Assembly (NCBI RefSeq): GCF_030704535.1
Contig: NC_081822.1
Span: 10,843,001 to 10,907,000, forward strand
Length of the DNA: 64,000 nucleotides
DNA from: Vitis vinifera
Taxonomy: Eukaryota > Streptophyta > Magnoliopsida > Vitales > Vitaceae
Reading direction: 5' to 3'
Position 1 is the first letter of the stretch, and each line of letters opens with the position of its first letter. The notes below the pieces were generated by a model. It made no database searches, was not told the DNA's origin, and was given only the letters and a program-made list of their open reading frames with translations. The translations under genes were made by a program, and so were the position numbers. Shown one piece after another: positions 70 to 46,048 of the stretch.

Positions 70-9918
<9,849 letters not shown>

Positions 9919-9983: not shown

Positions 9984-11303
9984 ATGACCCTAGTTTTAAA
10001 TTAAAAAAAAACCCTCAAAATAGACTTTTGTTTTTTTTTTAGTAATCGGTTTGGATTATCCATTCACAGTTAGTAAGCGGGCCATGATTTCAAGCCCGCT
10101 GGATCTGGGCTTAAAATGGATCAATATAGACAAAGTTGGGCTTGAAATTAAACATGGAAGGAACCGGGCCCAGGCGAAACTCTTGTCACTTCACACATTT
10201 TGATTATAATGTTATTATACCCTAGAATGAAAGGCATTTATTGCAATGATGTAATCTTTAAAAAATGATACATGAAAAAAATTTCATAGCACTCATCTTC
10301 TATAAGAAAAATTATAAAGGTTTTTATTTGATTCTCAGCCATGTAGCTGTAGTAGATTTAGAGGGTCTTCCGTAAATCAGTTTAATCACTTAATAACTTA
10401 ATTTAAGTTATTAAATAGATTAAATATATTTAGTAATTAATTTAATATTTAAATTATTTTAATTTTAAGTATTAAATTAAAATAGTTAACTTACTTTTTA
10501 TTTCAAATCTTTTTTACCTCCATTACCCACATTTATAATTGTATATTTTAAAATTATAATTCCATATCCATATATAACTCATTTTTTGTAATAAATATTT
10601 TATATATCTCCAATACTTTAAATATAAATAAATTTATTACTTAAAATTAATGAAAATAATTTGAAGTTAAAAATAATGAAGATAAATGTGTCGATTTGAT
10701 GATTTAGAATAAATTTAAAATTAATTTTATTCAACAACTTTAATGCTTAAATAAAAAAAAACAATAAGTTTAAAATTAATAACTTAATAACAATTTAAAT
10801 TAAAGTCAACTTAAGTTATTAACTAATAAATATTAAGTTTACCGAATATTCACTTAATAGAAATTGTAAAAATAATTTGTTAATAAAAATCATTAATGTA
10901 GAGAATCATTTTTAAGAGCCTTTTACAAAATTATGACTGCCTCTTTACGAATTAATGGGTACGTTAGCTTCAAGAGTAATTTGGTTGGTTCTTTATATGC
11001 AAAAGATAAATGCTTTTTATATCCCCAATTGAAAAGATATGCAAAATAAGATCCATCAATTCATAGTTCAAACCACGTCGTGTGATTGTAATAATGTTTC
11101 TTGTTTTATCAACTTTAAAATTAAGGGTGCTGTGAGATGTTACTTTTTGAATAAGACCATTCATTTGCAAAAGAAATGGAAGCACACTGACACAGCCCAC
11201 ATTTTTCGTTTTCTAACGAATGCGACATTTCATTGCAACATATAAGACACCATGCTTGAAAATGATAGGCAGTCTCTTTCTCGCTTGTGTCATCGACGCG
11301 GAT
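9984..11303. other. OTC upstream / array-flanking spacer
   Basis: No gene seen. The central 10366-10850 part is a possible AT-rich inverted-repeat element, described separately. The rest is AT-rich non-coding DNA. Confidence 0.5.
10366..10850. mobile_element. Possible AT-rich MITE with imperfect inverted ends
   Basis: The left end reads TCTTCCGTAAATCA and, soon after, ACTTAATAACTTAA. The reverse complement of the right end reads ATTCGGTAAACTTA and then GTTAATAACTTAAG. The interior is almost wholly A/T. No target-site duplication was identified, so the borders are approximate. Confidence 0.35.
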
Positions 11304-12837
<1,534 letters not shown>

Positions 12838-12968
12838 TATTTTCAAAATTAAGGACGAAATCAAATAAAATAATTAAAAGATAGTTAATTTGAGGAAGTA
12901 TTAATAATGCTTGATGAAGTACTGATATTGGCTCGTTTCTGGTGATGGAAAGAAGAGGAATGGTTGCA

Positions 12969-14166: not shown

Positions 14167-16635
14167 CTAGGTCTTGCCATCTACAGGTTTCTCATGTGAA
14201 GGGGGAAGCAATCCCTTGGCCCGGCATGTGTCCACAGCTCCAGTAAACATGTCCTCTAAGCTGTATTTAAACTCAAACCCCAAATCTGTCAGCTTCTTGG
14301 AGGAGAAACAGACACTCTTCAAGTTCTCATCAACACCTTTGAACCTGGGCACCAACATTCAGTTAGCTCTATAAAACAGATGCCCTTATTTTAATCAAGT
14401 CCCAGTGCTATAATCCAAAAACAAGGCATGTCAAAATTTAGGAAGGATTTAAAGGCTAACTCTGTGGGGATATTATACTCGGGGTATTTTTCTCTAAGCA
14501 TTTTTGCAAGATCGAGAATGATACAATCGTGGGAGGAGCAAATGTAACGTCCCTCTGCCTTAGGATTCTCAAACAAGTAAATATGAGCATTGCAGAGGTC
14601 ATCCAGGTGAACAAATTGGCCCTGCCGTATAATTGAATAATGAGCTTCGTTTCCTGTAACCAAACACAAAAATAAGGTGAATAGGGACAGCACTCATGCT
14701 TTTAAGTACTCTGGCAGAAAAAAAGAAGTACCAGTGATCGGGGAAAGAGCAGTTATGAGGCTTGGAGGCATTGATGACATTATGAAGGGGCCAACCACAA
14801 GAGTCGGTATGATAGTGATGAAGTCAATGTTATTTTCCTTGGCATACTTCCATGCAGCTTGCTCAGCCAGTGTCTTGGAGACAAAGTACATCTGAACAGC
14901 AGAAGAAAATGTTTCTCTTCTAAGTTGTTGCCTTCTAAAAAACTTCCTTGAAAGCATTTTACAGGTTTGGTATTTTTCACCTCTAAAAATTCCTTCAAAT
15001 GGATGAGAACATACAGATAAAGTTTAAAATTTAATTCAAGTTGTGAAAATGATTTTGAAACTTAGGAAAACCATGAAGTTTTCAATTGAATTAGAGCATT
15101 TCAATGATTTTCAACATATGTTTTGCTATTTGATAATTTTTTGAGTAACCACTTCCTGAACATTTGTGTATGAGTATATCAAAAACTAGAAGTTGAAATA
15201 CAAACCCATGCAGTCATCTTTTTAGCCCGGCAAAATTCCATATCACTCCAGCAGCTTTCATCGTACACTGGCAGTTGGTGTTCTTGAATGTTCACAGTTC
15301 CTGCGGAGGATGTGAATACAAGCCTTCTGACAGTCTTTGCGGCAGCACACGATTTCATTATGCCCAACATCCCTTCAATAGTTGGCTTTATCACTTCATT
15401 CTGAAATACAGAAAAAAACAATCGACTTTGTAATTATAATCTATAGTTAATCATGAACAAACAGCCATTTCATTTGTGGACAATCAACCCATACATGTCG
15501 GAATTCAGTAATATAGGGACCACACAACCTCAAGGGAGCTTGATCGAGTCCAAAGTGGGTTTCATAATAGAAGAATAAGCACATGTGCTTTAGAAACTAA
15601 AAACCAATTACGGTATCTCCCGCTCGCATAAAGAAATTGCTTTCCCATTTTGAAATAGCAATTTCAGGGGAAGAAGATTGTCTTCCAAACCCTTTATCCG
15701 ACGCCCCTTTGGTATATCCGTTTCTGGTCTTTTAATTTTCCTATAGCCACCAGAGGATGGTCGCGGATTGGTTGGTGACCCAAATTCTACTCCAAATTGA
15801 ATAGGGCAGAGCCTGGTTCGATTGACAAAAGTGAAGAAGTTCTCTGAAATTGGTCACGGCCCATATGAATGGACTAGAGCCAGACTCACCCACTTTTCTA
15901 CTGTTTGCTTATCAACCTAATTGACCATTGTATTCCGCCCCGTATTCTGGACAGGAGGATACAAAAAAAATCACTCCATACACAGTCTACATCGGAAATC
16001 ACAGGACCTATGGCAAAGACAATATACTGTTATCGCCATGTCATCTGTGATACCCACTAAGATTTCAATTTGGGGAGCCAAAACCCAGCAGCCACTGAAA
16101 AAGGGCATGACTCTTTCACCTGCTGCCGCAACAGCCAGAAACACCGGCCTGTCCAAGGTTCTAAATCATTCTTCTTAAATTTCCTTAAAAGATTTTGTAG
16201 CACACCCAGGCACATGTAATTTAGGTATTTCATTCTGAGAACAGTACCTCAGGATCCTTCGATTCAAAATCCATGGGTGTGGCAACATGGAAGACGCCGG
16301 TGCAGCCTTTAATAGCTTCATCGAAACTTCCTTCATCAGCAAGATCTGCCTTCCAGAGAGTCAGATGCGTCTCCGCTTTGGGCAAGTCCAGCAAATGCTT
16401 CACTTTTTTCACGTTAGCTGAGCACAAAACAGTCACAAAATCCATCAACCATTTTGGGTCAATTAAAGAAAAAAGAAAAGAAAAAAGCGAAGAAGTAGAG
16501 TGAAAAAGAAACCCTACTTGGATCGCGAACGGTGGCCCGAACAGTATAGCCGCGCTCCAGGAGCCTCATGACCAGCCATGAACCGATGAAACCGGAGGCA
16601 CCGGTGACGCACACGGTTTCACTTTGTGAACCCAT
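14167..16635 (-). CDS. DFR: Dihydroflavonol 4-reductase
   Basis: Reduces dihydroflavonols with NADPH to leucoanthocyanidins, the committed step towards anthocyanins and condensed tannins; cytosolic or ER-associated. Six exons: 16635-16518, 16417-16248, 15400-15206, 14891-14732, 14653-14461 and 14344-14167. They total 1014 nt and encode 337 residues. Residues 10-18 (VTGASGFIG) form the Rossmann dinucleotide loop. The catalytic triad is S128, Y163 and K167 (MYFVSK). N133 is the Asn known to govern dihydroflavonol preference in DFRs. The sequence agrees with the grape DFR of known structure as I recall it, which fixes both gene and species. The start is MGSQSE; an upstream in-frame ATG would add a hydrophobic extension lying largely in the 5'UTR. 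A TATA box is at 16728-16734, and a cluster of MYB-like sites and a G-box lies above it. Confidence 0.98.
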
Positions 16636-21799: not shown

Positions 21800-22033
21800 G
21801 TTTTGTGACCCATTCTGAAATTTTGAATTTAGGCTTGGAAGATTTCATAGACCGAAGCCCATGTACAATCGAAAAGGCAAAACACATCAAACATCGTACA
21901 TAACAATGAAATTTCCACATAAATGAGAGCAAAGCACATAAGTCACAGTTTTAGTGGCCAACATTATCGCCTAATATGGTACAACCATGAAGTCTATAAG
22001 AAATATGATAGAAGAGAGGGATAAGAGTTCGAA

Positions 22034-24454
22034 TGTCACGCCCCAAGACCCACTCCAAGAGCGTGACGATCATTTCACACCTCAAACCTGAAGGCTTAAA
22101 GTGTAACCTGACCCAAACAATCATAGTGTAACTGGAAGTAATCAATTACCAAATACCTATTCAGAGTAGCGAAACAAAATTCTAAAATCTTCAAACTTAA
22201 CTTCAAAACTAAGCATCCATCAACCAAAATCCATTATCCAAATAGATTGCAAACTCAAACAAATCAAGTGCTAACAAATTTTCATAATCTCCAAATCTCA
22301 ACTTCAAACTATCATAAAAAAAATTGTAAGTTCAAATCTAAATAGCTTCCAAAAACCAAATAATTCAAATAAACATAAACTTATAAGCTAACAATGTCAA
22401 AAAAATAGCATTCTAAGCAAAATCCTAATGATGACTATTCCTTAACCTAGCCATCACTCCTCGCCCGAACTAAGGGTACCTAAAAAATTATCAACAAATA
22501 GGAATGAACTCAAAGTCCAATAAGGAACATTAATGCAGCCCATGGATCAAACATTTGAAGTTCACTTGCAAAATAGGAAATATTATAACTAATTATTTTC
22601 ATAAACCTTTGAGTCAGTTTTTCCAATATATTCAAAACTTTTAATTGTACACTTTCATTTCTGATTCAAACATTTTCATATCAAATTCAATTAAAACATT
22701 CAAATTATTTATTTACTCTGGTCATCAAACATCAAATGGTGTCCAATTATGTAGGACTTTTCAAATAGGTGGCTAGCCTCAAATTGTTCATTTAAGGTGG
22801 ACGGAACCAAACACTACTAGTATTAGTAACCTCTAACCACCAAGAAATGTAGTCAACTATTATATCTAGTTGACAATGGTCAAACAAACCAGAGTCAAAC
22901 ACTTATTTCAACTATTCAAATTTGCAAAACATAATATCTTCACATTTCTCTGTTATAAACAAAATGTAAGGTTCTAACATACTTTTCATGCAAAACATAT
23001 TTGATCTATGCATAAAACGAATAATAACTCAAAACATTTCCAAATGATGTATATAAAAATTTGTTTCTAAAAAAAAATCAACTGCATTAATTTCCTTTAC
23101 CTCAAAAGAAGTCTTCAAAAACTTTGGAGAAAAATAATCTTGAAAATCTACTCTCACCTGACAAAATATAAGAGAAATAATCATTACTATTTATCTAAAA
23201 TTATAGGTTTGACAATCCTAAAATTTTAGGTATTCAAATTAATGTTTTTTAATTATGAAAGATAATTTAATCTATTCCTATTTTAGAAATTTTAATAAAT
23301 TTCTAATTCATATAAAACTTAAATTTTATTTTCAATTTATTTCTTGGGACACAACATAATTTAATTAAATTATAATTTATTTCATTAATTAAATTCTATG
23401 CTATTTATTTACTTACACCCATCATTAATATAATTATAATACCGAAAACTTTACTTTCTTTTATTTATAAATTATATTTTCTCACTTCCAAGTTTTTTTT
23501 TTCACCAAACATAGCCTATACACAACAACTCTCCATCATTGCTAATATATATATATATATATATATTAACCACCCCAATATCATCCGTACACATATTCTT
23601 TTATTAAATAATACAGTACCCATCAAAGCCTAATAACACAAAGCCTGGAGTCCTGCTACTATTAAATATTACATACCCAAGTATCCATCAAAGTCTAATA
23701 ATAGAGTATGTGAAAATCCACCAACTAGATTTCAATCATAAAATCCTTATATAATGCTACAAAAAGTGGCAACACAAGTCCCAATGGCTAAGTCTAATAA
23801 TAGAGTATGTGAAAATCACCGACCCGTAAAATCCTCACATCATGCTACAAAGAGTGGATGCACAGTTCCCACACGTATGCAACCAGTGCACATGCATTTT
23901 TTTTTTCTTTTTCTAATCCCTTAAGCCACAATTAACAATATATTTATTTACTTTTTTTTTTAAATAAATTGACCCTAGCCTAAATCAAAATCTTCCAAAG
24001 AATCTTTTTTTTTTTTTCATCTAAAAACTTAAGGTTTTCCAATTTCCAACAATAAATCAAAATCTTAAATTTTCACTATTTTGATATTAAAATGAATTAA
24101 AAATAAATAAATTAACCCTAATCTAGATTTGGGTTTTCCAAAAAAATATATAATGTACTTGAAATTAACTAATGAATTTAAAATATTAATTTAGGGGTTA
24201 TAATCTTATCTATAGAAATATGTTCTTTAAACCCTGAAATCCGACTTCAACCTTACATTTTCTAGAATTCTGTGAATAGGAACGCTATTCAGAAAAGAAC
24301 AGGAAGAACATAATTTCTAATTTATACCTAGGGTATTTATTCATAAAATTACATTTTTACCCCTATTTCAATTTTGTTAAATTGATTAATTAATTAATTT
24401 AATTATTATTAATATTTTCCTAAATTACCCCTAAAAAAAAACTTGGGCATTACA
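22034..24454. mobile_element. 2.4 kb LTR-like insertion (TG...CA)
   Basis: Starts TGTCACGCCCC and ends GGGCATTACA, the ends typical of many plant gypsy LTRs. The flanks TCGAA (22029-22033) and TCAAA (24455-24459) are a possible 5 bp duplication with one change. The sequences on either side join into the DFR-like 3' flank as it stands at 27625-27660, so both borders are supported by a filled/empty-site comparison. No coding sequence is seen inside, so it is probably a solo LTR. Confidence 0.65.
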
Positions 24455-27030: not shown

Positions 27031-27655
27031 AGAACCTGCCATGATCGGGATAATACACTTCAGCGGGAAAATTTTCCCCCAAATTTTGGCTCCACCAGCA
27101 CCTGTAGAGACTGTCAAGGTTTACGTGCATGTACATGTTCTATTTAGGTGTACGGGTTTTATTGACTGTCTCTAAAGTTGTGTGACAGTATATTCATCTT
27201 CTTGTATTGGTCTGTAGAGAACTGAGACAAGTGAAATTTTTTCACACGTACTAGTGAGCAAGGCCAGTGAAATTTTGGCACCAATTGGGAAGGAAGGTGT
27301 AATAAACGGACCAATCACGAAAGGGGATAAATGTTAACAAGATAAAAGGCCTTTCTGTTAGGCTAAAGGCCAAAGAGATCATGGTTATTGACAATGTATA
27401 TTATATATGTGGTAATGTTGTATTATTTGACCCTAAATAATGAGGGCAACCGAACTGAAGCCGGCCCAGTACAAAGGCAAATCACACATCAAGCATAGTA
27501 TATAATCATGAAATTTCCATGGAAATAAGAGGAAAGCACCTTAGTCACAGCTTCAGTGGCCATCATTATCGTCCAATAGGGTACAATTATGAGGTCCAGA
27601 AGAAATATGATAGAAGAGAGTGATAAGAGTTCATAATTCCTGGCTTCTTTGTTTC

Positions 27656-29777
27656 TCATGTGGCACCAGGAGATGGCATCAGCCCCTTCTCTTTGCATGA
27701 TTCAATGGCTCCAGAACACAGATCCCCAATGTCGTATTCCTCTGAGTTGTACTTAAATTTGTAGCCAAGGTCCAATAGTTTCCTAGAGGAACAAGGGATA
27801 GATTTCAAGGATTCATCCACACCCTCAAATCTGAGTAAAAATCACAGTGTACCAAGTTCATCAGGCAGGAGGTAGAGATGAGTCAGTGCATCAAAATTAA
27901 ACAGAGCATATGGTGATGCATACTTGGTTGGGATATTGTACTCTGAGTACTTGAGGCTCAATGATCTTGCTAGCTCAATGATATTAAAACAATGGGAAGA
28001 GCAAATGTACCGTCCCTTTGCCTCTGGATGTTCAAATAGGTATATGTGGGCATCACATAGGTCATCTACATGCACAGCTCGTCCTCGAGCCAACAAGTTG
28101 CAGCCAGCTTCCTCTCCTAGAGATATATATTTATTACATATGGTAAGTTGTACTGTAAAAATATAGTTATGGTAAATAAAATCGCACAAGTTGCCAGAGA
28201 CCAAGACAGCGAAGAATTTCAGACGTACCAGTGAGTACCGCGAGTACAAGTTTAGCGCTAGGAGGCAGGGAAGGTGTAACAAATGGCCCCACCACAACAG
28301 GGGGTTGAATGGTAACAACATCCAGGCCTTTCTCTTTGGCGAATTCCCACGCAGCTTTCTCGGCTGTTGTTTTAGCAATAAAATACATCTGTAACAAAAT
28401 GAAAACTTAGACTGGGATCATTAGATTATGGCTACAGTTCATGGCTATTGAAGATCAGTCATTAGATTTTGTATGTTGATCCTAAATAAAATAGCTGCTG
28501 AACATGACCTGTTGGAGTTCGCTAACTATGATAGTACTAATTAGGTAAAAGTGAAATTGGTTTTATTTACAAATTATTTTGGAATAATTTGGAATTCATT
28601 AATTGTTCGAAAGTCTATTAAATCATTTGAAGTGAATCAAGTGATCTTGAAAACAAGTCATGACTTTTCACGGAGGAAATTAAGCAATAACCTTTTAAGA
28701 TATGCTTTTGCAATGGAAAATGTTATTAAGGTTATAATCACAGGTCCAAATTAAATAGAATTTTGAAAAAAATGTGACATGAAATGGAAAAAATGCTGAC
28801 CCACGCAGTCATCTTCTGAGCCTTGCAGTAGTCGACGTCAGTCCAAAAGCTTTCATCGTACTCAAGCGGGAGTGGTTCTGGTCCAACTGTAATGGTTCCA
28901 GTGGTTGAAGTATAGATGAACCGCTTGACGGTCTTGGCCTTGGTGCAGGCTCTCATGATGTCTAAAACCCCATTCACTGTTGGATCTATCACTTCATTCT
29001 GCCACACCATTAATATTCTAATATCTTCATCAGTACTTGTCATTCACCGTTATCAGGAACAATATAGATCATTTCAAGAATTAAACTGTAAGTTTGGCTG
29101 CAGTAGCATTCCTGCAATATCTATCATTGTTATCATATGGGGGAAAAACAGAAGTTCTTGCCCATAGGTTCAAAAGACTCGCATGCATCAAATTTCATTC
29201 TTTGTTTGCCAGTTCAATTTTCAACTGTGTTAAAGATTTAAAGGAAGAAGAGTTTGCTGTTCCTATCAGTGAAGAGAGGTCCGACAGCCCCTTTCATGGA
29301 AATATCACTTAAAAATGAAAAAGGAAAAATAAATAAAATAGAATAAGATAACTGATCGTGGATCCTCGAAGCATGCTCTAAGAAAGAATACCTGGGCATC
29401 CTGAGTCGATATGTCCATAGGGGAAGCCACGTGGAAGACTCCAATACATCCCTGAATAGCATCGTCAAAACTTCCCTCTTCCTTCAGGTCTGCTCTCCAC
29501 AAGCTCAGGTGTGTGCTGGCTTTGGGCAACTCTAAAAGATGCTTCACCTTCTCCACGTTGCCTGCACCAAACCCACGTTATAACTTATAAGATTGTAATT
29601 AAGAATTAATGTTATTAGAAAATTAATTGGGCAAGGCAGTGAATGAGTAGTACCAGGATCGCGTACGGTTGCATGAACATAGTAGCCTCGTTGGAGAAGC
29701 TTCATAACCAGCCATGATCCTATGAATCCCGAGGCGCCCGTGACGCAAACGGTGCCCTTCTCACCTCCTTCCATCAT
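27656..29777 (-). CDS. DFR-like reductase, paralog 1 (intact)
   Basis: An extended short-chain NADPH reductase of the DFR/CCR/vestitone-reductase group; its substrate is not known. Six exons: 29777-29654, 29561-29392, 28998-28801, 28388-28229, 28116-27924 and 27830-27656. They total 1020 nt and encode 339 residues. Exons 2, 4 and 5 have exactly the DFR lengths (170, 160 and 193 nt). The Rossmann loop VTGASGFIG is present, and Tyr and Lys of the active site are kept (MYFIAK). The position of catalytic DFR S128 is Thr (YTSTTGT), and that of N133 is also Thr. The start could be either of two adjacent Met codons (29777 or 29774). A partial duplicate of this gene lies directly upstream. Confidence 0.92.
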
Positions 29778-30022
29778 TTTTATCAAATTGAGATATTCAG
29801 AAATTTTTTTGTACTTGTATTAGTAAACTCAGAGAAGAAGGGAGCAGGTTATCTGACCTCACAGCCACGTAAGTGGGGATGAAAATGCTCGTGGAAATTC
29901 AATGTACAGGTCCCAGAATGTTTGGGCCCGGCCCGTAGTCATTATCATTGCTGTCGCCGGCCCTTGAATAGTTTCATTTTATCACTAGTCCGCGTCCGCA
30001 GTCACCGTCATGGTTGTATTTT

Positions 30023-31396
30023 AAACGGTGCCCTTCCCACGCAGCTTTCTCGGCTGTTGTTTTAGCAATAAAATACATCTGTAACAAAGTGAAAACTTAG
30101 ACCGGGATCATTAGATTATGGCTACAATTTCATGGCTATTGAAGATTAGTCATTAGATTTTGTATATTGATCCTAAATAAAATAGCTGCCGAATATGACC
30201 TGTTGGAGTTCGCTAACTATGATAGTACTAATTAGGTAATAGTGAAATTGGTTTTATTTACTCATAATTTTGGACTAATTTGGAATTCAGTAATTGTTCG
30301 AAAGTCTATTAAATCATTTGAAGTGAATCAAGTGATCTTGAAAACAAGTCATGACTTTTCACGGAGGAAATTAAGCAATAACCTTTTAAGATATGCTTTT
30401 GCAATGGAAAATGTTATTAAGGTTATAGTCACAGGTCCAAATTAAATAGAATTTTGAAAAAATGTGATATGAAATGGAAAAAATGCTGACCCACGCAGTC
30501 ATCTTCTGAGCCTTGCAGTAGTCGACGTCAGTCCAAAAGCTTTCATCGTACTCAAGCGGGAGTGGTTCCGGTCCAACTGTAATGGTTCCAGTGGTTGAAG
30601 TGTAGATGAACCGCTTGACGGTCTTGGCCTTGGTGCAGGCTCTCATGATGTCTAAAACCCCATTCACTTTTGGATTATCATTTCATTCTGCCACACCATT
30701 AATTTACTAATCATCAATGCATGTCATTCACCGTTACCGGGAACAATATTAATCGCTTCAAGAATCATTAAACCATAAGTTTGGTCGCAGTAGCATTCTG
30801 CAATCTCTACCATTATTTTTAATGGGTCAGGCCACCGGGGAACAGAAGTTCTTGTCTTCTTGTCGATAGGTTCAAATGATAAAAGATTCACATGCATCAG
30901 GTTAATATTTTTTGTTGCCAGTTCAAATGTGAACTGTGTTATGGTGCAAAGAAAGAATTAATTGTTGTTCCAATCAGAGAAGAGAAGTCGGATAGCCCCT
31001 GTCATGGAACTGTGTTGACCACAATCTTTGCAGTATACATATTTACATTAAAAAAACAAAAAAAAACCTGTACATCCTGAATCGTTGTCATAGGGGAAGC
31101 GACGTGGAAGACTCCAATACATCCCTGAATAGCATCGTCAAAACTTCCCTCTTCATTCAGATCTGCTCGCCACAAGCTGGGGTGGGTGCTGGCTTTGTGC
31201 AACTCCAGAAGATGCTTCACCTTCTCCGCGTTGCCTGCAACAAACCGTAGTTATAACTTTGTAAATCGATGATAGTTGCATGAACATGGTAGCCTCGTTG
31301 GAGAAGCCTCATAACCAGCCATGATCCTATGAATCCTGAGGCCCCCGTCACGCAAACACTGCCTTCCCACCTCCATCATTCTCTCCTTCTTCCATC
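30023..31396 (-). pseudogene. Truncated tandem duplicate of DFR-like paralog 1
   Basis: Nearly identical to 28346-29780 plus flank. It carries exon 4 only as its first 43-45 nt (30078 down to about 30034), exon 3 (30687-30491), exon 2 (about 31237-31070) and exon 1 (about 31396-31285). Exon 3 has lost one base near its start (197 instead of 198 nt), giving an early stop. Exon 1 is frameshifted just before [11 protein letters not shown]. Most of intron 1 and its donor are gone. Exon 2 is one codon short near its end. Exons 5 and 6 are absent. The upstream flank (to about 31605) also matches that of paralog 1, so the duplicated unit was about 1.6 kb. Confidence 0.9.
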
Positions 31397-31605
31397 TGTT
31401 TTATGGAATTGAGATATTCAGAATTTTTTCATTTTCTGTAATGTCGAAAAAGCAGCAGAGTAGATTACCACGACTCACGGCCACGTGAGCAGTGACGAAA
31501 ACCTGGCCGTAATCATTATCATGGTTGTTGCCGGCCCCTGGAATGGTTGTATTTTGTGACAACTCACAAGTTGGTAGGCACCGTCATGGTTATATTTTAA
31601 ATGCT

Positions 31606-33615
31606 ATAAGAATAATAAACCCTAAACGTATTTTCAAATTTTCAGATTATTTTTTAAGATGAGTTCTATTCGTGCAAGTTTGTCTATGCTTAAAAAGCAT
31701 TTCCTTTTGTGGATTAGTTGAGGCGTCAATATCAAGGAAAAACAATAATTAGTGAGTTGAATCTAGGACTAGGGGCCCTGTCCAGTCCTATTTCATACCA
31801 ACCGTGCCCATTTTGAAGTACAATCAATAGCCCACCAAGAAAAGCCTCCGGCATAAGATCATCGACAAGAACTTTAGCCAACCATATCATCGGTCACTCT
31901 CTTGAACTTTGGGTAAGTTACAATTCGGTACCTTAGGATCAATTGAGTTTTTGTTTTTGTTTTTGATCCCTTTAATGTTAGGTTCATATCAAAATAACTG
32001 TAAAGAGCCCTACATGAGTGATAAATTTTCTTTCAATTTCTTCAGTAATCATACCAAATACCCAGCTGATCATGCATTCAGATTCTTTCATGGAAAATGT
32101 GGGGAGGGGTTTTAGGTCTGCAGGATGCGAGCAACTTTGGGCTCTCAATGGCTGAGGAATATGACTATTAAAAACACCTTATGGTAGCCCATTTATTTAT
32201 ACTTTGAATTGTAAATCCTTCCTCTATCGGATGTTTTTCATTTTTCTTTTCCACCTATGTTTCTTCGGTATATACTTTACATGTTCATCTTCATATCATA
32301 ATTAATATTTTCTCTCTCATGTCTCATAATATTATAAAGATATCTACGCTTTCCTTATTCAATAACTATATCTTATTTTTCAAATAAACATTAATTGTAG
32401 AGTTGAGAATTTGATTATTAGAAGTTGACTGATTAAACAATTAATAGTTAGTGAATAATTAGCTAAAGTTTAAATATTTGGAAAAAATAAAGACTTAAAT
32501 TAAGAATACGATAAAATATAGTTTTATTGTAACACAAGATTTAATTAAATTAGTAACTATGTAGGCATAGTATATGATATTTTAAGAAGATGAGAGATAA
32601 ATAAATAAAATCTATTAAGAAAGATGAAAGTGGCGTTAAAGCCATTGCTAGAAAGGAAAAAAAGAAGAAAGGATAGCAAACCACAAAACCACTTAGAAAA
32701 AAAAAAAAAAAAAAAAAACCTAGATAGTTGACTTACTAGAAATGTTTGAAACATCATTTGATAGACTAAACATAATCAATTTCATATGAAATTTTAGGAA
32801 GATATTCTACTTTATATAGAGAATATTGTTACAAAATTGGATTTTGGATCCAATGTTGGGTTTTTGGATTTTAGTAAAAAAATTTATAGATATTATTACT
32901 GAAAGTTAGATCTATTTATTTATTGTGATATTTTGCAAGTGATTCAAAGTATATGGTTATTTTTTAAAATTTATTTGCAATTATATGTATTTTTAATTAA
33001 TTTTTAGTAAAAATTATGTTAAAATAAATTTTCAATAATTATTTGTTGATGAGACAATTCATATGAATCAAAGAGAAATATTTATCAGAAGCATTAAAAT
33101 TATTCAAACTAATTATTAGTGATTTATTAGTGATATATTAATGTTAAAAATATGTGAAGCTTCAAAATTACTTGGATTGTGTTTAGAAGATGAAATTAAA
33201 ATTTATTAATGATATATTACTGTTACAAATAATGGAGATTATTTGTCAAGAATTTAGGAGTACTTTTATATATTTAAACTAATTATTTTAAATTATAGCA
33301 TAATATTATTTGAGTTAAGATTAAATAATTATATTATATCATATTTATTTTGCATCCGTATGGAAAGAAAAGTAAATAAATAGTTGTGTGAAATAGAAAT
33401 GAGAATAAAAAGACCTTAAAGAAGACAAAAATGAAAAGAAAAGAAAATAAGAAATAGGACCCTAGAGATAGCAAATCAAGAAGGAGGTGAAATTTTTAGT
33501 ATACGAAAGACACAAAATTTTATTTTAGAAAAACCCTGAATGAAGTGTATATTTGGATACAAATGTGTATCTTTCGATGAAAGTTCGATAACAATAATAC
33601 ATTAATTGTTTAATT
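31606..33615. other. AT-rich spacer: no gene seen
   Basis: Long AT-rich non-coding DNA with an A-run at about 32696-32718. Nothing recognisable was found on either strand. Confidence 0.5.
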
Positions 33616-33707
33616 GCCCTTGAAGCCTAGCTCAAGTGGTAAAAGGATAGAGAGGATTTGTGGGAGATTTCATGTTTAAGTCTTAATGGGAACAAAATTT
33701 ACTTATC

Positions 33708-33752
<45 letters not shown>
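33616..33752 (+). mobile_element. tRNA-derived SINE with (AAT)n tail
   Basis: The head has an A-box TAGCTCAAGTGG at 33628-33639 and a B-box-like GTTTAAGTCT at about 33674-33683. The body is short, and the tail is TTTACTTATCAA (33698-33709) followed by about 14 AAT units. AATACATT lies on both sides (just before, near 33597, and after the tail at about 33750), an imperfect target-site duplication. The 12-base tail equals the LINE 3' end at 8646-8657. Confidence 0.75.
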
Positions 33753-33754
<2 letters not shown>

Positions 33755-34602
33755 ATTGTCTAATCGAATGTAAATATTTGCATCATATTTGTCTTTGGAT
33801 GAAGGATTGATTTAGCAAAAGTGATAATTTGGATTGATTTACTTAATTTTGTGTAAATAATGTTTCATTTCATGTATATCAGGTAAATGAAATATTATAT
33901 TCTGATATGCAATGGTATCATGTTCACCTAGAATTTTTTTAATTCCTTTGCGTGCAAGATGCCCTAATAAGTAGTGTGAAAATGCGTACCTTTTTCCCTA
34001 AATATTTTAGACTTGGATATAATTTATGAAAACCATAAAAAGACGAAAGAAAGTTCCAACAAGTCCCACAAAGCGAATAACAACCTAAATGATTGTTTTT
34101 AATTTATGTTAAATGTTCTAACATATATTAATTTGAGTTATATGAATTATTGTAACTTAATCTCTAATTTTTTTAAAAAAATTTGTAAAGAACCTTTGAG
34201 AATATTTTATCGTGGAAATTATTGTAAAAATTTAGAATAATCACCTTGAATAATAAGATGATTAATAGAGTTATAATACTTATAAATAAGTCATGGTTGG
34301 TTTGAAAAAAAAAAAATCATATAGTAAATTTTAGTTTAATAAATTTATTTGAAATTAGATTTCAAATTATTAAAAAAAAATCAAGTTTTTAGGTAGATTT
34401 CTAGCTTAGATAGCATTATGAGAAAACCACAACAAAGAATAAAAGTAGAAATGAGAAAATAAGAAAATGATAAAAATAAAATAAAATAAAATTTAAAAAA
34501 AAAAAAAAAACACACACACACACATACAAAGCACATGATCATTTACATAATTCGAATTAAAGCTTATATTTATGCATGAAGATGGGGAATAACTTACATT
34601 AT
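33753..34602. other. AT-rich spacer with short CA repeat
   Basis: No gene seen. A-run and (CA)n at about 34495-34524. Confidence 0.5.
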
Positions 34603-34900
34603 TGTTGAAAAAGATTACAACTTGAAGCTCTCAAATCCCAAATTCTCAATTACACCCAAAAAAAGACTCCCTCTTTTAAGTTAAAAGCTTTTCTTATATA
34701 GTTTCCTAATTACATAGAAAATTTTCATATAAGAAACTAATGATATAATTGTCAAATATACCTATTCCTAAAAGAAGATCTCACAATAAGATATTTCATT
34801 TATGATAATAGGAAACTCCTTTAAATGAATATATCATATTAAGAAACTATTAATGACGTTTCTAATTAACTCAAAATGGAATATGAGACATTTTTCAACA
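34603..34900 (-). mobile_element. 3' LTR of decayed Ty1/copia element
   Basis: 298 bp bounded by TGTTGAAAAA and TTTTTCAACA inverted ends. On the minus strand it begins right after a purine-rich ACATGGAGAT tract, which is the usual copia polypurine tract. The pol remnants lie on the other side of that tract. Confidence 0.75.
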
Positions 34901-36900
34901 ATCTCCATGTTGGCTTAAATTTCTAAGATTCAAATAAAATCAAAAGTCTTTCATGTTACTTTATTCTCACATTTTTGTTGAGCCTTCAAATGCTACCAAC
35001 ACCGTTAAGTCTAAACAATTAATTCTAGGAATGAATTTAGTCATCATATTTGTTGGAATGTCCCTATAGGGATTTTTTTTTCACTATAATAGCACCCCAT
35101 GCAATCACATCTCTAATAAAATGCATTCTAACTTTAATATATTTGGTCCTCTCATGGAATATTTAATTTTTAATTAAATGTATAACACTTTGGTTATCAC
35201 AATACACAATAGTCAAACCTTGTTGCATAAGCCTAAATCACCAATCATACCCTTAAGCTTAAATAGTTTCTTTCACTACTTCTACTGCAATCATGTATTT
35301 TGTTTCATTTGTTGACAAAACAACTATAGATTCCAAGGTTGTTTTCCAACTAATAACACTATAACATAAAGTGAATACATATCCTATTAGAGACCTTCTA
35401 TCCAAATCTCCAGCATAGTCAAAATCAATATAAGCAACAGTTGCCTTAGAGACTTACTTCTCTTATTATATACTAAGCCAACATGTGATGTTCCTCTCAA
35501 GTATTGAAGCATTCATTTCACTAACTGCATGTCTGACCTAGTGCAAACTATAGCATACATGATCTTTCCCATTGAACAAGCATAAAAAACATGACATGTG
35601 TTCCCCCTCTTCCTTAATCTTTGGTGATAAAACACTTGAAAGTTTGAAGTGAGCTACTAATTGAGTACTCATTGGTTTTGACCCTTACATTCCAAAATGT
35701 TCCAACACTTTCTCAATCTTTTTTGGTGAAAAATACAATTTCCCCTACTCTCAATCTTTATGAATCATCATACTTAATATTTTCTTCACAATTTTAAGGT
35801 ATTTCATTTTAAACTCCCCTTTAAGTTAAGTTTTAAACCAATTGACATTAGACATATTCTTATAGCTAGGTAATTAACATGTCATCAATACAACAATAAA
35901 TAAGTGAAAGAATCATTAAAAAAAATTAATTTTTTTTTTAAATTCCTTGTGATGAACACTTTTTTCATACTTAGTCCTAAAGTAGTTATTACCAATCATA
36001 AAAGTATCAAACCTTTTATATCACTTCCTAGAAGATTACTTTAAATCATAAAAAGATTTCTTCAACAAACAAACATAGTCATCCTTTCCTGAAGTAATGA
36101 ATCCCTTAGGTTGATGTAAACAAATATGTTCTTCCAATTCGCCATATAGAAAATCAATTTTGACATCAAATTACTCTAACTCTAAATCAAATAAAGCAAT
36201 CATAGCAATAACACTTTGATTGAGTTATGTTTCACAATTAGAGAAAACACTTCATTGAAACCCTTTCCCTCCTTTTATGTGTAGCCCTTTAGCTGAAAGA
36301 AAGTGTGAACTCACCTGTAAGCTCAACAAGCCTTCGTAGACTATAGACAACTTGACTAGGCTTCTCAACTAGTTGTCAAATATGGTTCTTTTGAAGAGAT
36401 TCAAACTCTTCATTCATAACAACAATCCATTATGTAGACTCCCTATTAGTGATAACTTCATGATAAGTACAATGTTTCTTATTTTCAATGTTTTCTATCA
36501 CACTAAGTGCATAAGCATACCTTTGAGATGGTTTAATCTATCTTCTCATTCTATCTCTAATCAAACTATATTATTACTCTTATGATGTATTTTCTTTATC
36601 ATTAGAATGTTGCACTCCTTTCTCCTTTGACTTCAGCACTTAAATTGTTCTTTCGATGGTTCTTGAAACTTTAGGCACAAACTCCACCTTCTCTTTTAGT
36701 TGAAGTTGTTTTCTACATCAAATTGCTCCTTCCTATGACTTAACATCACAAAATCATTATAAATCATATCTAATAAGACATTTGGAGAATGTTGAATATG
36801 GGCACAATAGTTTGTACTCTTTCACTCCATTTGCATATCCCAAAAATATACACTTTATTTTCCTTTTTATTCTTAAATTAGCATAACTAGAAGGGGACTA
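34901..36900 (-). pseudogene. Ty1/copia pol relic
   Basis: The minus strand shows, with many stops and frameshifts, pieces of copia polyprotein in normal order. Near 36850 is FLGYANGVKEYKL (integrase C-terminal side). At about 36000-36240 are FLYGELEEHICLHQPKGF and DDYVCLLKKSFYDLK (reverse transcriptase). YIDFDYAGDLDRRSLIGYVF and LSTNETKYM (RNase H) lie at about 35300-35440. No 5' LTR was found, so the element is truncated as well as mutated. Confidence 0.85.
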
Positions 36901-37931
36901 GACCATACCAAGTTTTCTATAATTTTTTATTCATGGTTAGAAAGAAAAGGAAAATATTGCTTGCTTTTCTCTTACTAACAATATTGATGTTTGCATTTCC
37001 AAGTAACTAGTTTGGAATTTGCCTAGGGTGTGGTGCTACTTAAACAAGTTGGTCTAAATCAGTTTATATCCAACATGATATTTAGGATGGTTTGAAAAAA
37101 TATTTATAATACTTGAATTGGGCTTAGATTGAGAGAAATCGGCCCTAACTCAATTTGAATTGGGCTTGAGTCAAGAGTTCAACCAAAACAAGCTTAACTA
37201 ATTCGATTTAACAATTTATAATATTTATAATCTATATTATTTCACATGACAATGTTCAATTTATATAATTCAAATAATTTTCAAAGTGATGTATCAAAAT
37301 TTAATTATGCAAGATAATAAATTTTTTTATTGTTATCTTAGAATGATATATTATTTATTATTTAAGTTTTGGTATAAATGTATAAAAGATAAAATTTTAA
37401 AAATTCATTACAAATGGGTTTAACTCAACTCAAATTTAACTCAATAATCCGAACATGTCTAACCCAAGTTTGGAAAAATGAGAATAAATTACGTTTGTAT
37501 TGACTATCTTGGATTTGAGGTTGGGTTGGGTTAAGTAAAACCGTAAGAGTTGAACGTTTATATATTTGGATTGGGCTCTGGTTGGGTGCAAACCCAACCA
37601 ACCCCTCGATTTGCTGGCCTATGTTTACCTGCCAAGATCCAGGGCCTCCAACTTCTCTCAGGCTTTCCTGAGACCTAGCCTGAAAATTTGACGTACTTAG
37701 TCACTTAGGTCTACATTTCATGGACCGAAGCCCACGCCAGGGGTGTGGGGTACTAAAGGCAAATCACACGTCAAATTCAATGGCCATGAAATCCAACATA
37801 AATGAGAGCAAAACCGCATAAATCACAGCTTTAGTGGTCAGCATTATCACAAAACAGTGCACAATTGTCAAATTTAAAGGAATATGATAAAAGAGAGTGA
37901 CAGTATCCATCACTTCTGGTCTCGTTGCTTC
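36901..37931. other. 3' flank of DFR-like paralog 2 and spacer
   Basis: No gene seen. From about 37715 the sequence (CATGGACCGAAGCCCACG...AGCTTTAGTGGTCAGCATTATC) matches the 3' flanks of paralog 1 and the shattered relic. This shows the duplicated units included downstream DNA. Confidence 0.6.
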
Positions 37932-39779
37932 TTACTTGTCAGCCGGAAGTGGCAGAAGCCCCTTCTCTCTGCATGATTCAATGGCTTCAGCACACACATC
38001 CCCAATGTCGTATTCCTCCGAATTGTACTGAAATTTGTATCCAAGGTCCAATAGTTTCTTAGAAGAGAGCGGAACGGGTTTCGGGAATTGATCCATACCC
38101 TCAAATCTGCTCAAAAATCAATATACAAAGTTCATCAAGTGGTAGCTAACGATGAGCCAGTGCATCAAAATCAAATATAGCATATAGTCATTCAGTAGAC
38201 ATGCATACTTGGCTGGGATATTGTACTCTGGATACTTGTTGCTCAATGACCTAGCAAGCTCTGTGATCTCAAAACAATGAGAGGAGCAAATGTATCGTCC
38301 CCTTGCCTCTGGATGCTCAAACAGGTATATATGAGCATTGCACAGGTCCTCTACATGCACAGCTTGTCCTCGAGTCAAGAGCACATAGCTGCGTTCATCT
38401 CCTATATATGTATATAACATGAAGGATATGTCATAGTGTGCAGTGATCGTGGTATAATAACAATAGTAACAATCAAAGTAGCCAGTCAAGTGAGACTTTT
38501 TTCAGACGTACCAGTAAGCAAGGCAAGTGAAATTTTAGCACCAACTGACAAGGAAGGTGAAATAAAAGGACCAATCACGAAAGGCGGATGAATGGTGACA
38601 AGATCAAGGCCTTTCTCTTTGGCGAATTCCCATGCAACTTTCTCCGCTGTTGTTTTAGCAACGTAATACATCTGTAGCAGCACAACTAAAATCGTCAGGC
38701 CAGGATCATAGTATTCTTGTTAATTACCGGGTCATGGTTATTAATTATGTAGTAATTTTGTTAAAAAAGAAAGATGAGTTCTGACCCATGCAGTCATCTT
38801 TTGAGCCTTGCAGTAGTCTATATCAGTCCAGAAGCTCTCATCAAACTCAAGCGGAGGCGGTTGTGGCCCAGTGGAAATGGTTCCGGTGGTTGAAGTGTAG
38901 ATAAGCCGCTTAACGCTCTTGGCCTTAGTGCAGGCCCTCATGATGTCCAACATTCCATTTACTGTTGGTTTTATCATTTCATTCTGCCGCAGCAGTATAT
39001 AATATTATTCATCTTTACCAAAGGAAAGGACGTCCATTGTTATCATTTATCAACATATGATAATAACAGTTATTATAATGATAATAATAGTAATAATTAA
39101 TAGTCAAATATCAAACTGTTTGGCTGCACTGAGACGAGACATTTTCAGAATATGTTATTCTTTTGAGTGCTCCACGCCGTTGGAGAAAACAAAAGAAGTA
39201 TTTATCGGGTGGGGTTCAGGATACAAGCTTGTTGCAAACAGAAATTGCTCCATACCACTTTTTTTTTTTTTAACCATTTCAAATGCCTAGGCTGCAATCA
39301 CGGAAGATGGCCAAAAAGATCACCTCTTTCATGGAAATATTAAGCTAACAATTATAAATTATTACCTCGGCGTCCTTAACCGATATGTCCATAGGGGAAG
39401 CGACATGGAAGACTCCAACACATCCCTGAATAGCATCGTCAAAACTTCCCTCTTCCTTCAAATCTGCTCTCCACAAGCTCAGATGCGTGCCGGCTTTCGG
39501 CAATTCCAGAAGATGCTTCACCTTACCATGGTCCGCTGCAACAGACCCTCGTTATAAGCTTATGATATGAAATGCATGAATGGTATTAAATCTTAGAAAA
39601 TAAACCAAGACAGTGAATTACGAGTAGTACGAACCGGGATCGCGCACAGTTCCATGAACATAGTAACCTCGTTGGAGAAGCCTCATAACCAGCCATGATC
39701 CTATGAATCCTGTGGCCCCCGTCACGCAAACGCTGCCCTTTCCACCTCCCTCGTTCTGATCAGTCCGACCTCCTTCCAT
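37932..39779 (-). CDS. DFR-like reductase, paralog 2 (intact)
   Basis: Same family as paralog 1; substrate unknown. Six exons: 39779-39635, 39535-39366, 38983-38786, 38671-38512, 38401-38209 and 38106-37932. They total 1041 nt and encode 346 residues. Exon sizes 170/198/160/193/175 equal those of paralog 1. The N-terminus is longer and Gly/Asp-rich before VTGATGFIG. Active-site Tyr and Lys are kept (MYYVAK). The DFR S128 position is Thr (YTSTTGT) and the N133 position is Ser. A possible TATA box at 39818-39824 lies only about 40 bp above the ATG, so the 5'UTR would be very short or another promoter is used. No in-frame stop or broken splice site was found. Confidence 0.93.
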
Positions 39780-43578: not shown

Positions 43579-43646
43579 GTTGCTTTTTATACAACTATAT
43601 AACCCACAAAAACTCTGAGAAGCTTTTCCACATTGAACTGTGAGAG

Positions 43647-46048
43647 ATGAAGAGTTGGGCTTTAGCTTTGCTTGTTCTTGTGTTTATTCAAAAACAGGGG
43701 AATTTCCTCCAAGTGGAAGCAGCCGATGGGTTCGTTAAAACCAGTGGAATGCATTTCGTGTTGAATGGGCTTCCGTACCATGCAAATGGGTTCAATGCGT
43801 ATTGGTTAATGTATGTGGCCTCAGACCCATCTCAGAGAAGCAAAATCTCATCTGCCTTTGCAGAAGCTGCAGGTCATGGCCTTACGATAGCCAGAACATG
43901 GGCTTTCAGTGATGGTGGATACAGACCTCTACAGTACTCTCCTGGCTCCTACAACGAACAGATGTTCCAGGTTTGTCTAAGATTTCTGCCCCTTTTTTTT
44001 TTCTCTCTCTTTTTTATTAAATTTTTAATCCATGTATTATTGTCCATGACCTTTCTTCTTCATTCTTTCTTTCCTTTCTTGGGTTCAAAAGGGGTTGGAT
44101 TTTGTAGTATCAGAAGCAGGAAAATATGGGATAAAGCTAGTGTTGAGCTTGGCAAACAATTATGAAAGCTTTGGAGGAAAGAAGCAGTATGTGGACTGGG
44201 CAAGAGGTCAGGGGCAGTATTTAACATCTGATGATGATTTCTTTAGGAACTCAGTGGCGAAGGGATATTACAAAAACCATATCAAGGTGGGTATCACATA
44301 CAACAGATCTTGTTCCTAATTCCTATCGTATTTTGTTGTTCTTTCTTATTAACATTTCTTACTGGATTGTTTTGCTTTATTTGATTTTATTACTTCTGAA
44401 TTTTGTTTTGGTGTCTTGGATTTTGGGTAATGGGATGAGTTTCTGCATTTGTTATGACATCAGTTCAACAAGGGTTTCCACCAAATTTTCTTCTCCGCTT
44501 TGGCAAATAGCTTCCATGATTACAGCTACTCATTTTGTGAAAAATTATTGAGTGTGATCTCCTCCCCCCCCCCCCCCCCCCCCCCAAAGAAAAAAAAGGA
44601 AAAGGAGCAAAAATGGTGATATTGATTCTAATTAATTTTCCATTTCTCATTAGACTGTTCTTACAAGGCGTAACAGCATCACTGGAGTTGTTTATAAGGA
44701 TGAGCCAACGATAATGGCTTGGGAGCTTATGAATGAGCCTAGATGCACTTCAGATCCATCAGGGAGGACGATTCAGGTTAGGCAAATCTCCCTCTTTCAT
44801 TTGCTTCATCGTTACCTCACTCTGAAGTTCTTATTTTTATTTTTTTACATAATATAAGATATTGGGTTCTTTTTTCCTTTTACATTTTTCCTTGACAAAG
44901 CGATCCATCCTGCCAATCAAATCAGACTTTGAGCTCTTAATCTTCCTATTAGTACTTATTCCAAAGCAGGAACAAGAAATGCCTAATTGCAGCATAATTC
45001 TTTTGCAGCGTCCGTAACAAGGATTCTAAAATTACCATTTTTTTATCATAGCTTTTCTTTGAAATTAATATTTATATAGGGACCACTAAATCCACCACCA
45101 AACTTGTAGCCAAGTTCCATTTAGTGGGTCTCTAGTTGAGTAGTGGGAAGGGCTGTAATTTTCGTTGCTAGTGGGAGCAGGAATCTTAGCCCCATGACCG
45201 GCCATAGGTTTAGGTTGGGTTACCTACCCAGAAAGATAAATAAATATTGTTGTATTTGTGTGACAGGCTTGGATTACAGAGATGGCCTCTTATGTAAAAT
45301 CCGTTGATGGAAATCACTTACTAGAAGCAGGTTTGGAGGGGTTTTATGGACAAACATCACCTCAGAAGCAGCAATACAATCCAAATTTTCAAGTGGGAAC
45401 AGATTTTATTGCAAATAATCAGATCCCTGGCATTGATTTTGCTACAGTTCACTCATATCCTGATCAATGGTAATAATCTTAAAATACATGGCGTTCCATC
45501 TTGAAACTGGCAATTTTACCGTTAAAAGCTCCCATCCTATCTATTTGCCTACAATGCCTCCTGAAATGTGTTATTTCTTTTGGATGAGCAGGTTCTCTAG
45601 CTCAAGCGATGACACCCAACTTTCATTCTTGAATGAATGGCTCAAGAATCATATCCAAGATGCACAGAATGTTCTTCGAAAACCGCTTCTCTTTACTGAG
45701 TTTGGGAAATCGTCAAAAGATTCCGGTTACAGCACATACCAGAGGGACATGCTGTTCAACACAGTCTACTCTGCAATCTATTCATCAGCCAGGAGTGGAG
45801 GTGCAGCTGTTGGTGGCATGTTCTGGCAACTTCTAACCGAAGGAATGGACTCTTTCAGAGATGGCTATGAGATAGTCCTCAGTGAGAGCCCCTCAACAGC
45901 CAATGTGATTGCTCAACAGTCCCACAAGCTTTACCTGCTTCGGAAGATGTATGCTAGGTTGAGAAACATACAGAAGTGGAAGAGAGCCAGAGCCATCAGA
46001 AGGGCTCAATGGTGGAATAGGAACAAGGGCAAGAATACGGGAAATTAA
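43647..46048 (+). CDS. Mannan endo-1,4-beta-mannosidase (GH5, secreted)
   Basis: Hydrolyses internal beta-1,4 links of cell-wall mannans; acts in the apoplast. Five exons: 43647-43970, 44092-44286, 44654-44776, 45267-45469 and 45592-46048. They total 1302 nt and encode 433 residues, the usual plant MAN length. Residues 1-26 are a hydrophobic signal peptide ending near VEAA. The GH5 acid/base Glu is in ELMNEPRC (about E201), and the nucleophile Glu is in LLFTEFGKS (about E318). [22 protein letters not shown] and GGMFWQL are further family blocks. The C-terminus is strongly basic ([14 protein letters not shown]). Intron 2 contains a 22-base C run. All catalytic parts are intact. Confidence 0.95.
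44564..44585 (+). repeat. 22-base poly(C) tract in mannanase intron 2
   Basis: An uninterrupted C run (G run on the other strand) about 70 bp before the intron 2 acceptor, followed directly by an A-rich stretch. Confidence 0.95.

What the first reader, a model, noticed from the sequence alone, without database searches (positions are those of the whole stretch)
27656..39779. Two intact DFR-like paralogs with altered catalytic and selectivity residues
Both paralogs keep all six exons, the Rossmann loop and the Tyr/Lys pair. Where DFR has the catalytic S128 they have Thr, and where it has N133 they have Thr or Ser. DFR structure work gives S128/Y163/K167 as the triad and N133 as the dihydroflavonol-selecting residue. 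Two open genes carrying the same Ser-to-Thr change suggest a retained but different reductase activity beside the anthocyanin gene.
Basis: partly seen in the sequence, partly recalled or inferred. Interest (0 to 1): 0.75.

Follow-up and report, generated by a model that had tools for sequence, protein, structure and literature searches.

The report
Two kept sister genes of grape DFR
Next to the grape gene for the pigment enzyme DFR lie two intact, selection-maintained relatives that split from it long ago; their unusual active-site letters do not by themselves prove a new activity, because working DFRs with such letters are known.

Summary
The window is grape chr18. Gene A (29777-27656) and gene B (39779-37932), minus strand, have six exons each, GT-AG introns, no stop or frameshift, 339 and 346 aa. 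Against the neighbouring DFR (337/337 identical to PDB 2c29) both have Thr for Ser128; Asn133 is Thr in A and Ser in B; Tyr163 and Lys167 are kept.

The inference is only partly supported. Switchgrass PvDFRa is an active DFR with natural Thr at this catalytic position, and its Thr-to-Ser mutant keeps substrate preference. SbDFR3 with Ser at the 133 position is active. Thr and Ser at 133 also occur in ANR and vestitone reductase, so they need not be losses.

A and B form one old clade (A-DFR dS about 2.5) that joins the DFRs (98/98). A-B dN/dS is 0.30. A truncated copy between them drifts (0.70, compatible with 1) while A stays constrained (0.25). Retention is supported; a changed substrate is plausible, untested. 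Non-Asn/Asp DFR-like classes, said to include Vitis, are in print. A new member of a known kind.

The parts
27656..29777 (-). Gene A: DFR-like reductase, 339 aa; exons 29777-29654, 29561-29392, 28998-28801, 28388-28229, 28116-27924, 27830-27656
   Evidence: spliced alignment and open reading; T128, T133, Y163, K167, R227
37932..39779 (-). Gene B: DFR-like reductase, 346 aa; exons 39779-39635, 39535-39366, 38983-38786, 38671-38512, 38401-38209, 38106-37932
   Evidence: spliced alignment and open reading; T128, S133, Y163, K167, Q227; TATATA at -47
30034..31395 (-). Truncated pseudogene copy of A: exons 1-3 and the first 45 bases of exon 4; single-base gaps in exons 1 and 3 when aligned to A and B
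   Evidence: the outer end (31395) is approximate
30026..30033 (.). Junction: the broken exon 4 of the pseudogene abuts the 5' flank of A, leaving A about 250 bases of upstream DNA shared with the other copy
   Evidence: self-alignment blocks 28344-29586/30034-31259 and 29928-30025/31502-31601
14167..16635 (-). Anthocyanin-pathway DFR, six exons, 337 aa, identical to PDB 2c29 over 337 of 337 residues; the reference for numbering
11283..12846 (-). Broken DFR copy with several in-frame stops and two frameshifts
27253..27372 (-). Exon-4 relic of a further, B-like copy with stops
21873..22030 (-). Relic of the 3' flank of an A-like copy

Best explanation
A and B are an old sister lineage of DFR in the SDR108E family: NADPH-dependent carbonyl reductases with the ordinary Rossmann loop and a working Thr-Tyr-Lys triad, in which Thr takes the place of the catalytic Ser as in switchgrass DFR. 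They most likely reduce a ketone of a flavonoid-like or other phenolic compound that is not the main dihydroflavonol flux, since the residues around the B-ring side (133, 225, in A also 227) and others nearby in sequence (189, 192, 206, 208, 219) differ from DFR. A tandem duplication made A and B; a later unequal duplication made the truncated copy and shortened A's upstream region. Shown: gene structure, residues, grouping with the DFRs, purifying selection. Inferred: fold, cofactor, activity, substrate class, and which of these residues line the pocket (only 128, 133, 163, 167 and 227 are taken from a paper).
For: Intact models; best sequence matches in the PDB are grape DFR (E 1.3e-139), a 'ketoreductase' 9m3k that is DFR-like (1.5e-132) and switchgrass DFR (3.6e-122), ahead of ANR at 4.1e-78. 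Tree: A+B 100/100; A+B with the DFRs 98/98; VvDFR + 9m3k + chr4 broken copy without A/B 84/84, which is not a firm value. A-DFR dS 2.5, B-DFR 2.8 (saturated, so only 'old'), A-B dS 0.45. Constraint; in a neutral simulation without indels 0.2% (A) and 0.1% (B) of 3000 runs kept no stop at 0.22 substitutions per site. 38 of 192 DFR-invariant positions changed in both; at 18 of the 38 the A or B residue is found in one of six ANR or VR-type rows. Thr is catalytically competent in PvDFRa. Tea CsDFRb1 and b3 showed no DFR activity in two studies.
Against: No transcript, protein or assay evidence for either gene was obtained. The place of A/B relative to the monocot DFR is unresolved (65/49; A/B with the eudicot DFRs not rejected, p-AU 0.41; A/B with VvDFR alone not rejected, p-AU 0.24). 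B keeps Gln227, and each of its residues at 128, 133, 163, 167 and 227 occurs singly in an active DFR. With DFR as the third leaf, dN/dS = 1 on the A branch alone or on the B branch alone is not rejected (2dlnL 2.45 and 0.76). A appears to have lost most of its upstream region, and no TATA-like motif was found within 300 bases of its ATG. The truncated copy looks mosaic, near B in exon 1 and near A in exon 3, so the branch estimates that use it may be disturbed.
Confidence: 0.55

Rival explanations
1. A and/or B are minor or tissue-specific true DFRs: the triad works with Thr, and Thr/Ser at 133 only shifts preference among dihydroflavonols.
For: PvDFRa (Thr) and SbDFR3 (Ser at the 133 position) are active; Anthurium S133 DFR is active on DHK; B keeps Gln227; a gene numbered VIT_18s0001g12820, called a VvDFR isoform, fell in co-expression modules with ANS and ANR in grape cells (PMC10993317), but whether it is A, B or neither I could not tell.
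Against: A and B sit on their own long branch (0.42) with 38 DFR-invariant sites changed; A has Arg227; Lotus S133 DFR1 and tea CsDFRb1/b3 lack activity.
Confidence: 0.22
2. A and B belong to a hormone- or isoflavonoid-type branch (BEN1-like, phaseic-acid-reductase-like or vestitone-reductase-like) rather than to the DFR side.
For: A literature tree puts a dicot-only BEN1 clade next to DFR, and CsDFRc with the phaseic acid reductase ABH2; A shares RFIYTS and R225 with vestitone reductase.
Against: In the grape tree the VR-like cluster of chr15 and a chr19 protein that I take from memory for PAR-like lie outside the DFR + A/B clade (98/98; the chr19 row has a long branch); identities to A are 43.5% (L041, the one chr15 model compared) and 35.5% (L056) against 59.8% for DFR. 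BEN1 and ABH2 sequences themselves were not available.
Confidence: 0.1
3. One or both genes are silent or on the way to loss, and the constraint is mostly past.
For: The cluster holds several decayed copies; A keeps only about 250 bases of shared upstream DNA; branch tests with DFR as third leaf do not exclude 1 for either gene alone.
Against: A is still constrained after the truncated copy arose (0.245, 2dlnL 5.5 against 1); no lesion in either gene.
Confidence: 0.13

Closest known systems
Grape DFR (PDB 2c29), the neighbour in the window
   Same: six exons with the same pattern (exons 2, 4 and 5 of equal length), Rossmann loop, Tyr163, Lys167, 58-60% identity
   Different: Ser128 to Thr, Asn133 to Thr/Ser, Gln225 to Arg, Gln227 to Arg in A, one extra residue before YDES/FDES and five near the C-terminus
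Switchgrass PvDFRa (PDB 8fem/8fen)
   Same: Thr at the catalytic Ser position
   Different: keeps Asn at 133 and Gln at 227; 55.6-55.8% identical to A and B but 66.7% to VvDFR
Tea class II and III DFRs (CsDFRb1, CsDFRb3, CsDFRc)
   Same: six exons, DFR-like, outside the core DFR branch, reported as neither Asn nor Asp type; the paper says classes II and III hold Vitis members
   Different: sequences not available here, so orthology untested; PMC6932780 gives Glu at this site in CsDFRb1 and calls it perhaps Asp-type
Grape ANR (2rh8) and Medicago vestitone reductase (2p4h)
   Same: Thr (ANR) or Ser (VR) at 133; several other shared residues
   Different: 42-43% identical to A; Ser at 128

Membership tests
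SDR108E / extended SDR (Pfam Epimerase) | NAD(P)-dependent epimerase/dehydratase domain | tested here: met
   PF01370 98.8 and 97.0 bits, cut-off 20.9
SDR108E / extended SDR (Pfam Epimerase) | Ser/Thr-Tyr-Lys catalytic residues | tested here: met
   T128, Y163, K167 in both; Thr variant known from PvDFRa
Dihydroflavonol 4-reductase (core) | falls in the clade of proven DFRs | tested here: inconclusive
   A/B group with the DFRs at 98/98, but inside or outside the monocot/eudicot core is unresolved
Dihydroflavonol 4-reductase (core) | Asn or Asp at 133 (the usual type) | tested here: not met
   Thr in A, Ser in B; some active DFRs also lack it
Dihydroflavonol 4-reductase (core) | Gln227 facing the B-ring | tested here: inconclusive
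   kept in B, Arg in A
Dihydroflavonol 4-reductase (core) | reduces dihydroflavonols with NADPH | not testable with these tools
   needs enzyme assay
Tea-type class II/III DFR-like group | orthology with CsDFRb or CsDFRc | not testable with these tools
   no plant protein collection held; only the statement that Vitis members exist
Anthocyanidin reductase / vestitone reductase | falls in the ANR or VR clade | tested here: not met
   ANR rows and VR-type rows form their own groups, 100/100 each, without A/B

The most novel reading that the evidence does not exclude
A and B represent a separate enzyme lineage that split from DFR near or before the monocot-eudicot divergence, kept beside DFR by selection, with a Thr-type triad and a remodelled B-ring pocket that reduces a distinct ketone (flavanone, isoflavanone or non-flavonoid) not yet assigned to any grape gene.
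Probability: 0.35. Interest if true: 0.5.

Novelty: new member of a known kind. Interest (0 to 1): 0.32.

Why it matters
The grape papers seen here name one gene at this site as DFR, and one calls a near-numbered gene a DFR isoform. If A and B do not act as DFRs, transcript counts that pool them mislead, and they are a ready test of what a DFR-sister reductase does. If they do act as DFRs, grape has reserve DFR genes with another B-ring preference.

Tried and rejected
The idea that Ser128Thr alone signals a new activity was rejected on the switchgrass DFR data. Ala at 113 (tea position 117, where Ser to Asn lost activity in tea) was dropped as an argument because PvDFRa and the 9m3k protein also have Ala there. 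I first took Gln225 for the B-ring contact; checking the numbering showed that it is Gln227, which B keeps (the wrong statement stands in note 1, and is corrected in note 2). Promoter scan of 1 kb before DFR, A and B for one G-box and two MYB patterns: at most one match each, reached by 66 or more of 500 shuffles (mononucleotide shuffle only). Literature: the miRNA-targeted 'DFR-like' genes of grape whose numbers appear in the passages seen lie on chr13 and chr3, not here (the full target list of the second paper is in a supplement not seen). Seven paper searches were made; no paper on the function of A or B turned up in their listings, and one of them (contact residues) gave 0 papers. Structure prediction was not tried because a spliced protein is not read from one stretch of the window.
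Full report
What is there. The window is G000:C18:10843001-10907000 of a 495.6 Mb genome, which I take for grape chr18: its DFR is identical to the Vitis vinifera protein of PDB 2c29 over all 337 residues. On the minus strand lie, from low to high coordinate: a broken DFR copy (12846-11283), DFR (16635-14167), a 3'-flank relic (21873-22030), an exon-4 relic (27372-27253), gene A (29777-27656), a truncated copy of A (about 31395-30034) and gene B (39779-37932). A and B are complete: six exons, GT-AG introns, no stop or frameshift, 339 and 346 aa.

Residues. In VvDFR numbering A has T128, T133, Y163, K167, R227 and B has T128, S133, Y163, K167, Q227. Ser128 is otherwise nearly universal: of 20 other grape models built from the strongest matches 19 have Ser and one, with two frameshifts, has Pro. 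Position 133 is free in the family, and Thr or Ser there are also found in ANR and in vestitone reductase. Both genes also share Gln225 to Arg, and 38 of 192 positions invariant in three DFR rows (VvDFR, PDB 9m3k, PvDFRa) are changed in both; 9m3k is labelled only 'ketoreductase' in the PDB and I take it as a DFR by similarity. At 18 of the 38 the A or B letter occurs in at least one of six ANR/VR-type rows.

Does the change mean a new activity? Not by itself. PMC10531346 (passages and section 2.2.1 seen) reports PvDFRa with Thr143 at this position in a DHQ complex; T143S raised efficiency 1.09-fold (DHK), 3.53-fold (DHQ) and 2.26-fold (DHM) without altering preference; Q242A (VvDFR 227) shifted preference toward less polar substrates; SbDFR3 with Ser148 (133) is active. 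PMC11356453 (passages, sections 11 and 16) lists Ser133 proteins that are active (Anthurium) and inactive (Lotus DFR1). PMC9250652 (passages, section 6) found no DFR activity in CsDFRb1 and CsDFRb3 but activity in CsDFRc, and states that its classes II and III hold Vitis members; PMC6932780 (passages, section 11) found no activity in five putative CsDFRs, CsDFRc included, so the two papers disagree on CsDFRc.

Ancestry. A protein tree of 19 rows puts A+B together (100/100) and with the DFRs (98/98), while VvDFR, 9m3k and a broken chr4 DFR copy group without them (84/84, not firm). In an 11-row tree the DFRs exclude A/B only at 65/49, and tests do not reject A/B with the eudicot DFRs (p-AU 0.41) or with VvDFR alone (0.24). 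dS to DFR is about 2.5-2.8, beyond reliable dating; A-B dS is 0.45. The split from DFR is therefore old, its exact depth open. In a genome search with part of A (184 residues, exons 3-5) 87 stretches matched at E up to 1e-5, exon by exon and only among scored candidates; the highest-scoring ones outside the window are four of the chr15 cluster at 42-45% identity, and none of the grape rows in the tree joins A/B more closely than DFR does.

Selection. A-B dN/dS 0.30, against 1: 2dlnL 47.5. Three-leaf model with the truncated copy (173 codons): A 0.245 (5.5 against 1), truncated copy 0.70 (0.36), B branch including the stem to A 0.21 (28.2). Three-leaf model with DFR: A 0.22, B 0.38, neither single value of 1 rejected (2.45 and 0.76). 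A simulated neutral gene, point changes only, keeps no stop in 0.2% (A) or 0.1% (B) of 3000 runs at 0.22 substitutions per site, about half the A-B dS. The weak point is that the truncated copy is near B in exon 1 (91.8% over 110 bases) and near A in exon 3, which hints at exchange between copies.

Upstream DNA. Self-alignment shows that the stretch before A that matches the other copy's upstream region ends near 30025 and is followed by the broken exon 4 of the truncated copy (30034). The simplest reading is an unequal duplication with ends in exon 4 and about 250 bases upstream of the ATG: the copy that kept the full upstream region lost its coding end, and A kept the coding region with a short promoter. 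No TATA-like motif was found in 300 bases before A; B has TATATA at -47 and DFR at -99. This makes expression of A the first thing to test.

Expression in print. PMC10993317 (passages, section 3.4) calls VIT_18s0001g12820 a VvDFR isoform in modules with ANS and ANR; DFR itself is VIT_18s0001g12800 (PMC5226110, PMC3283566, passages). By its number g12820 may be A or B, but I could not map it.

Verdict. A real, correctly read pair of intact paralogues under constraint; ordinary in kind for a family known for clustered, non-Asn/Asp DFR-like members (PMC3541173 passages); substrate unknown.

Noticed in passing
window 30026-30033: Duplication junction that leaves gene A only about 250 bases of shared upstream DNA, next to a pseudogene exon 4 fragment.
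   Followed up: yes
window 2623-8315, + strand: Two long open frames: one with DUF4283, one with endonuclease, reverse transcriptase and zf-RVT domains; looks like a LINE-type element.
   Followed up: partly
L045 (chr4, about 20.04 Mb): A DFR copy with Ser128 and Asn133 but Thr at Lys167 and broken frames; possibly the old genome-triplication partner of DFR (that link is recalled, not tested).
   Followed up: partly
window 31274-31382 and 39648-39757: Exon 1 of the truncated copy is 91.8% like B, while its exon 3 is nearly identical to A: a mosaic that suggests exchange between tandem copies.
   Followed up: partly
window 43647 onward, + strand: Start of a gene whose first exons read to me like a mannan endo-beta-mannosidase (recalled; the piece 43644-44165 gave no Pfam match at the default threshold).
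   Followed up: no
window 22031-24450: About 2.4 kb of unrelated DNA separates the 3'-flank relic at 21873-22030 from a short stretch at about 24455 that resembles the next part of A's 3' end; looks like an insertion (seen by eye).
   Followed up: no
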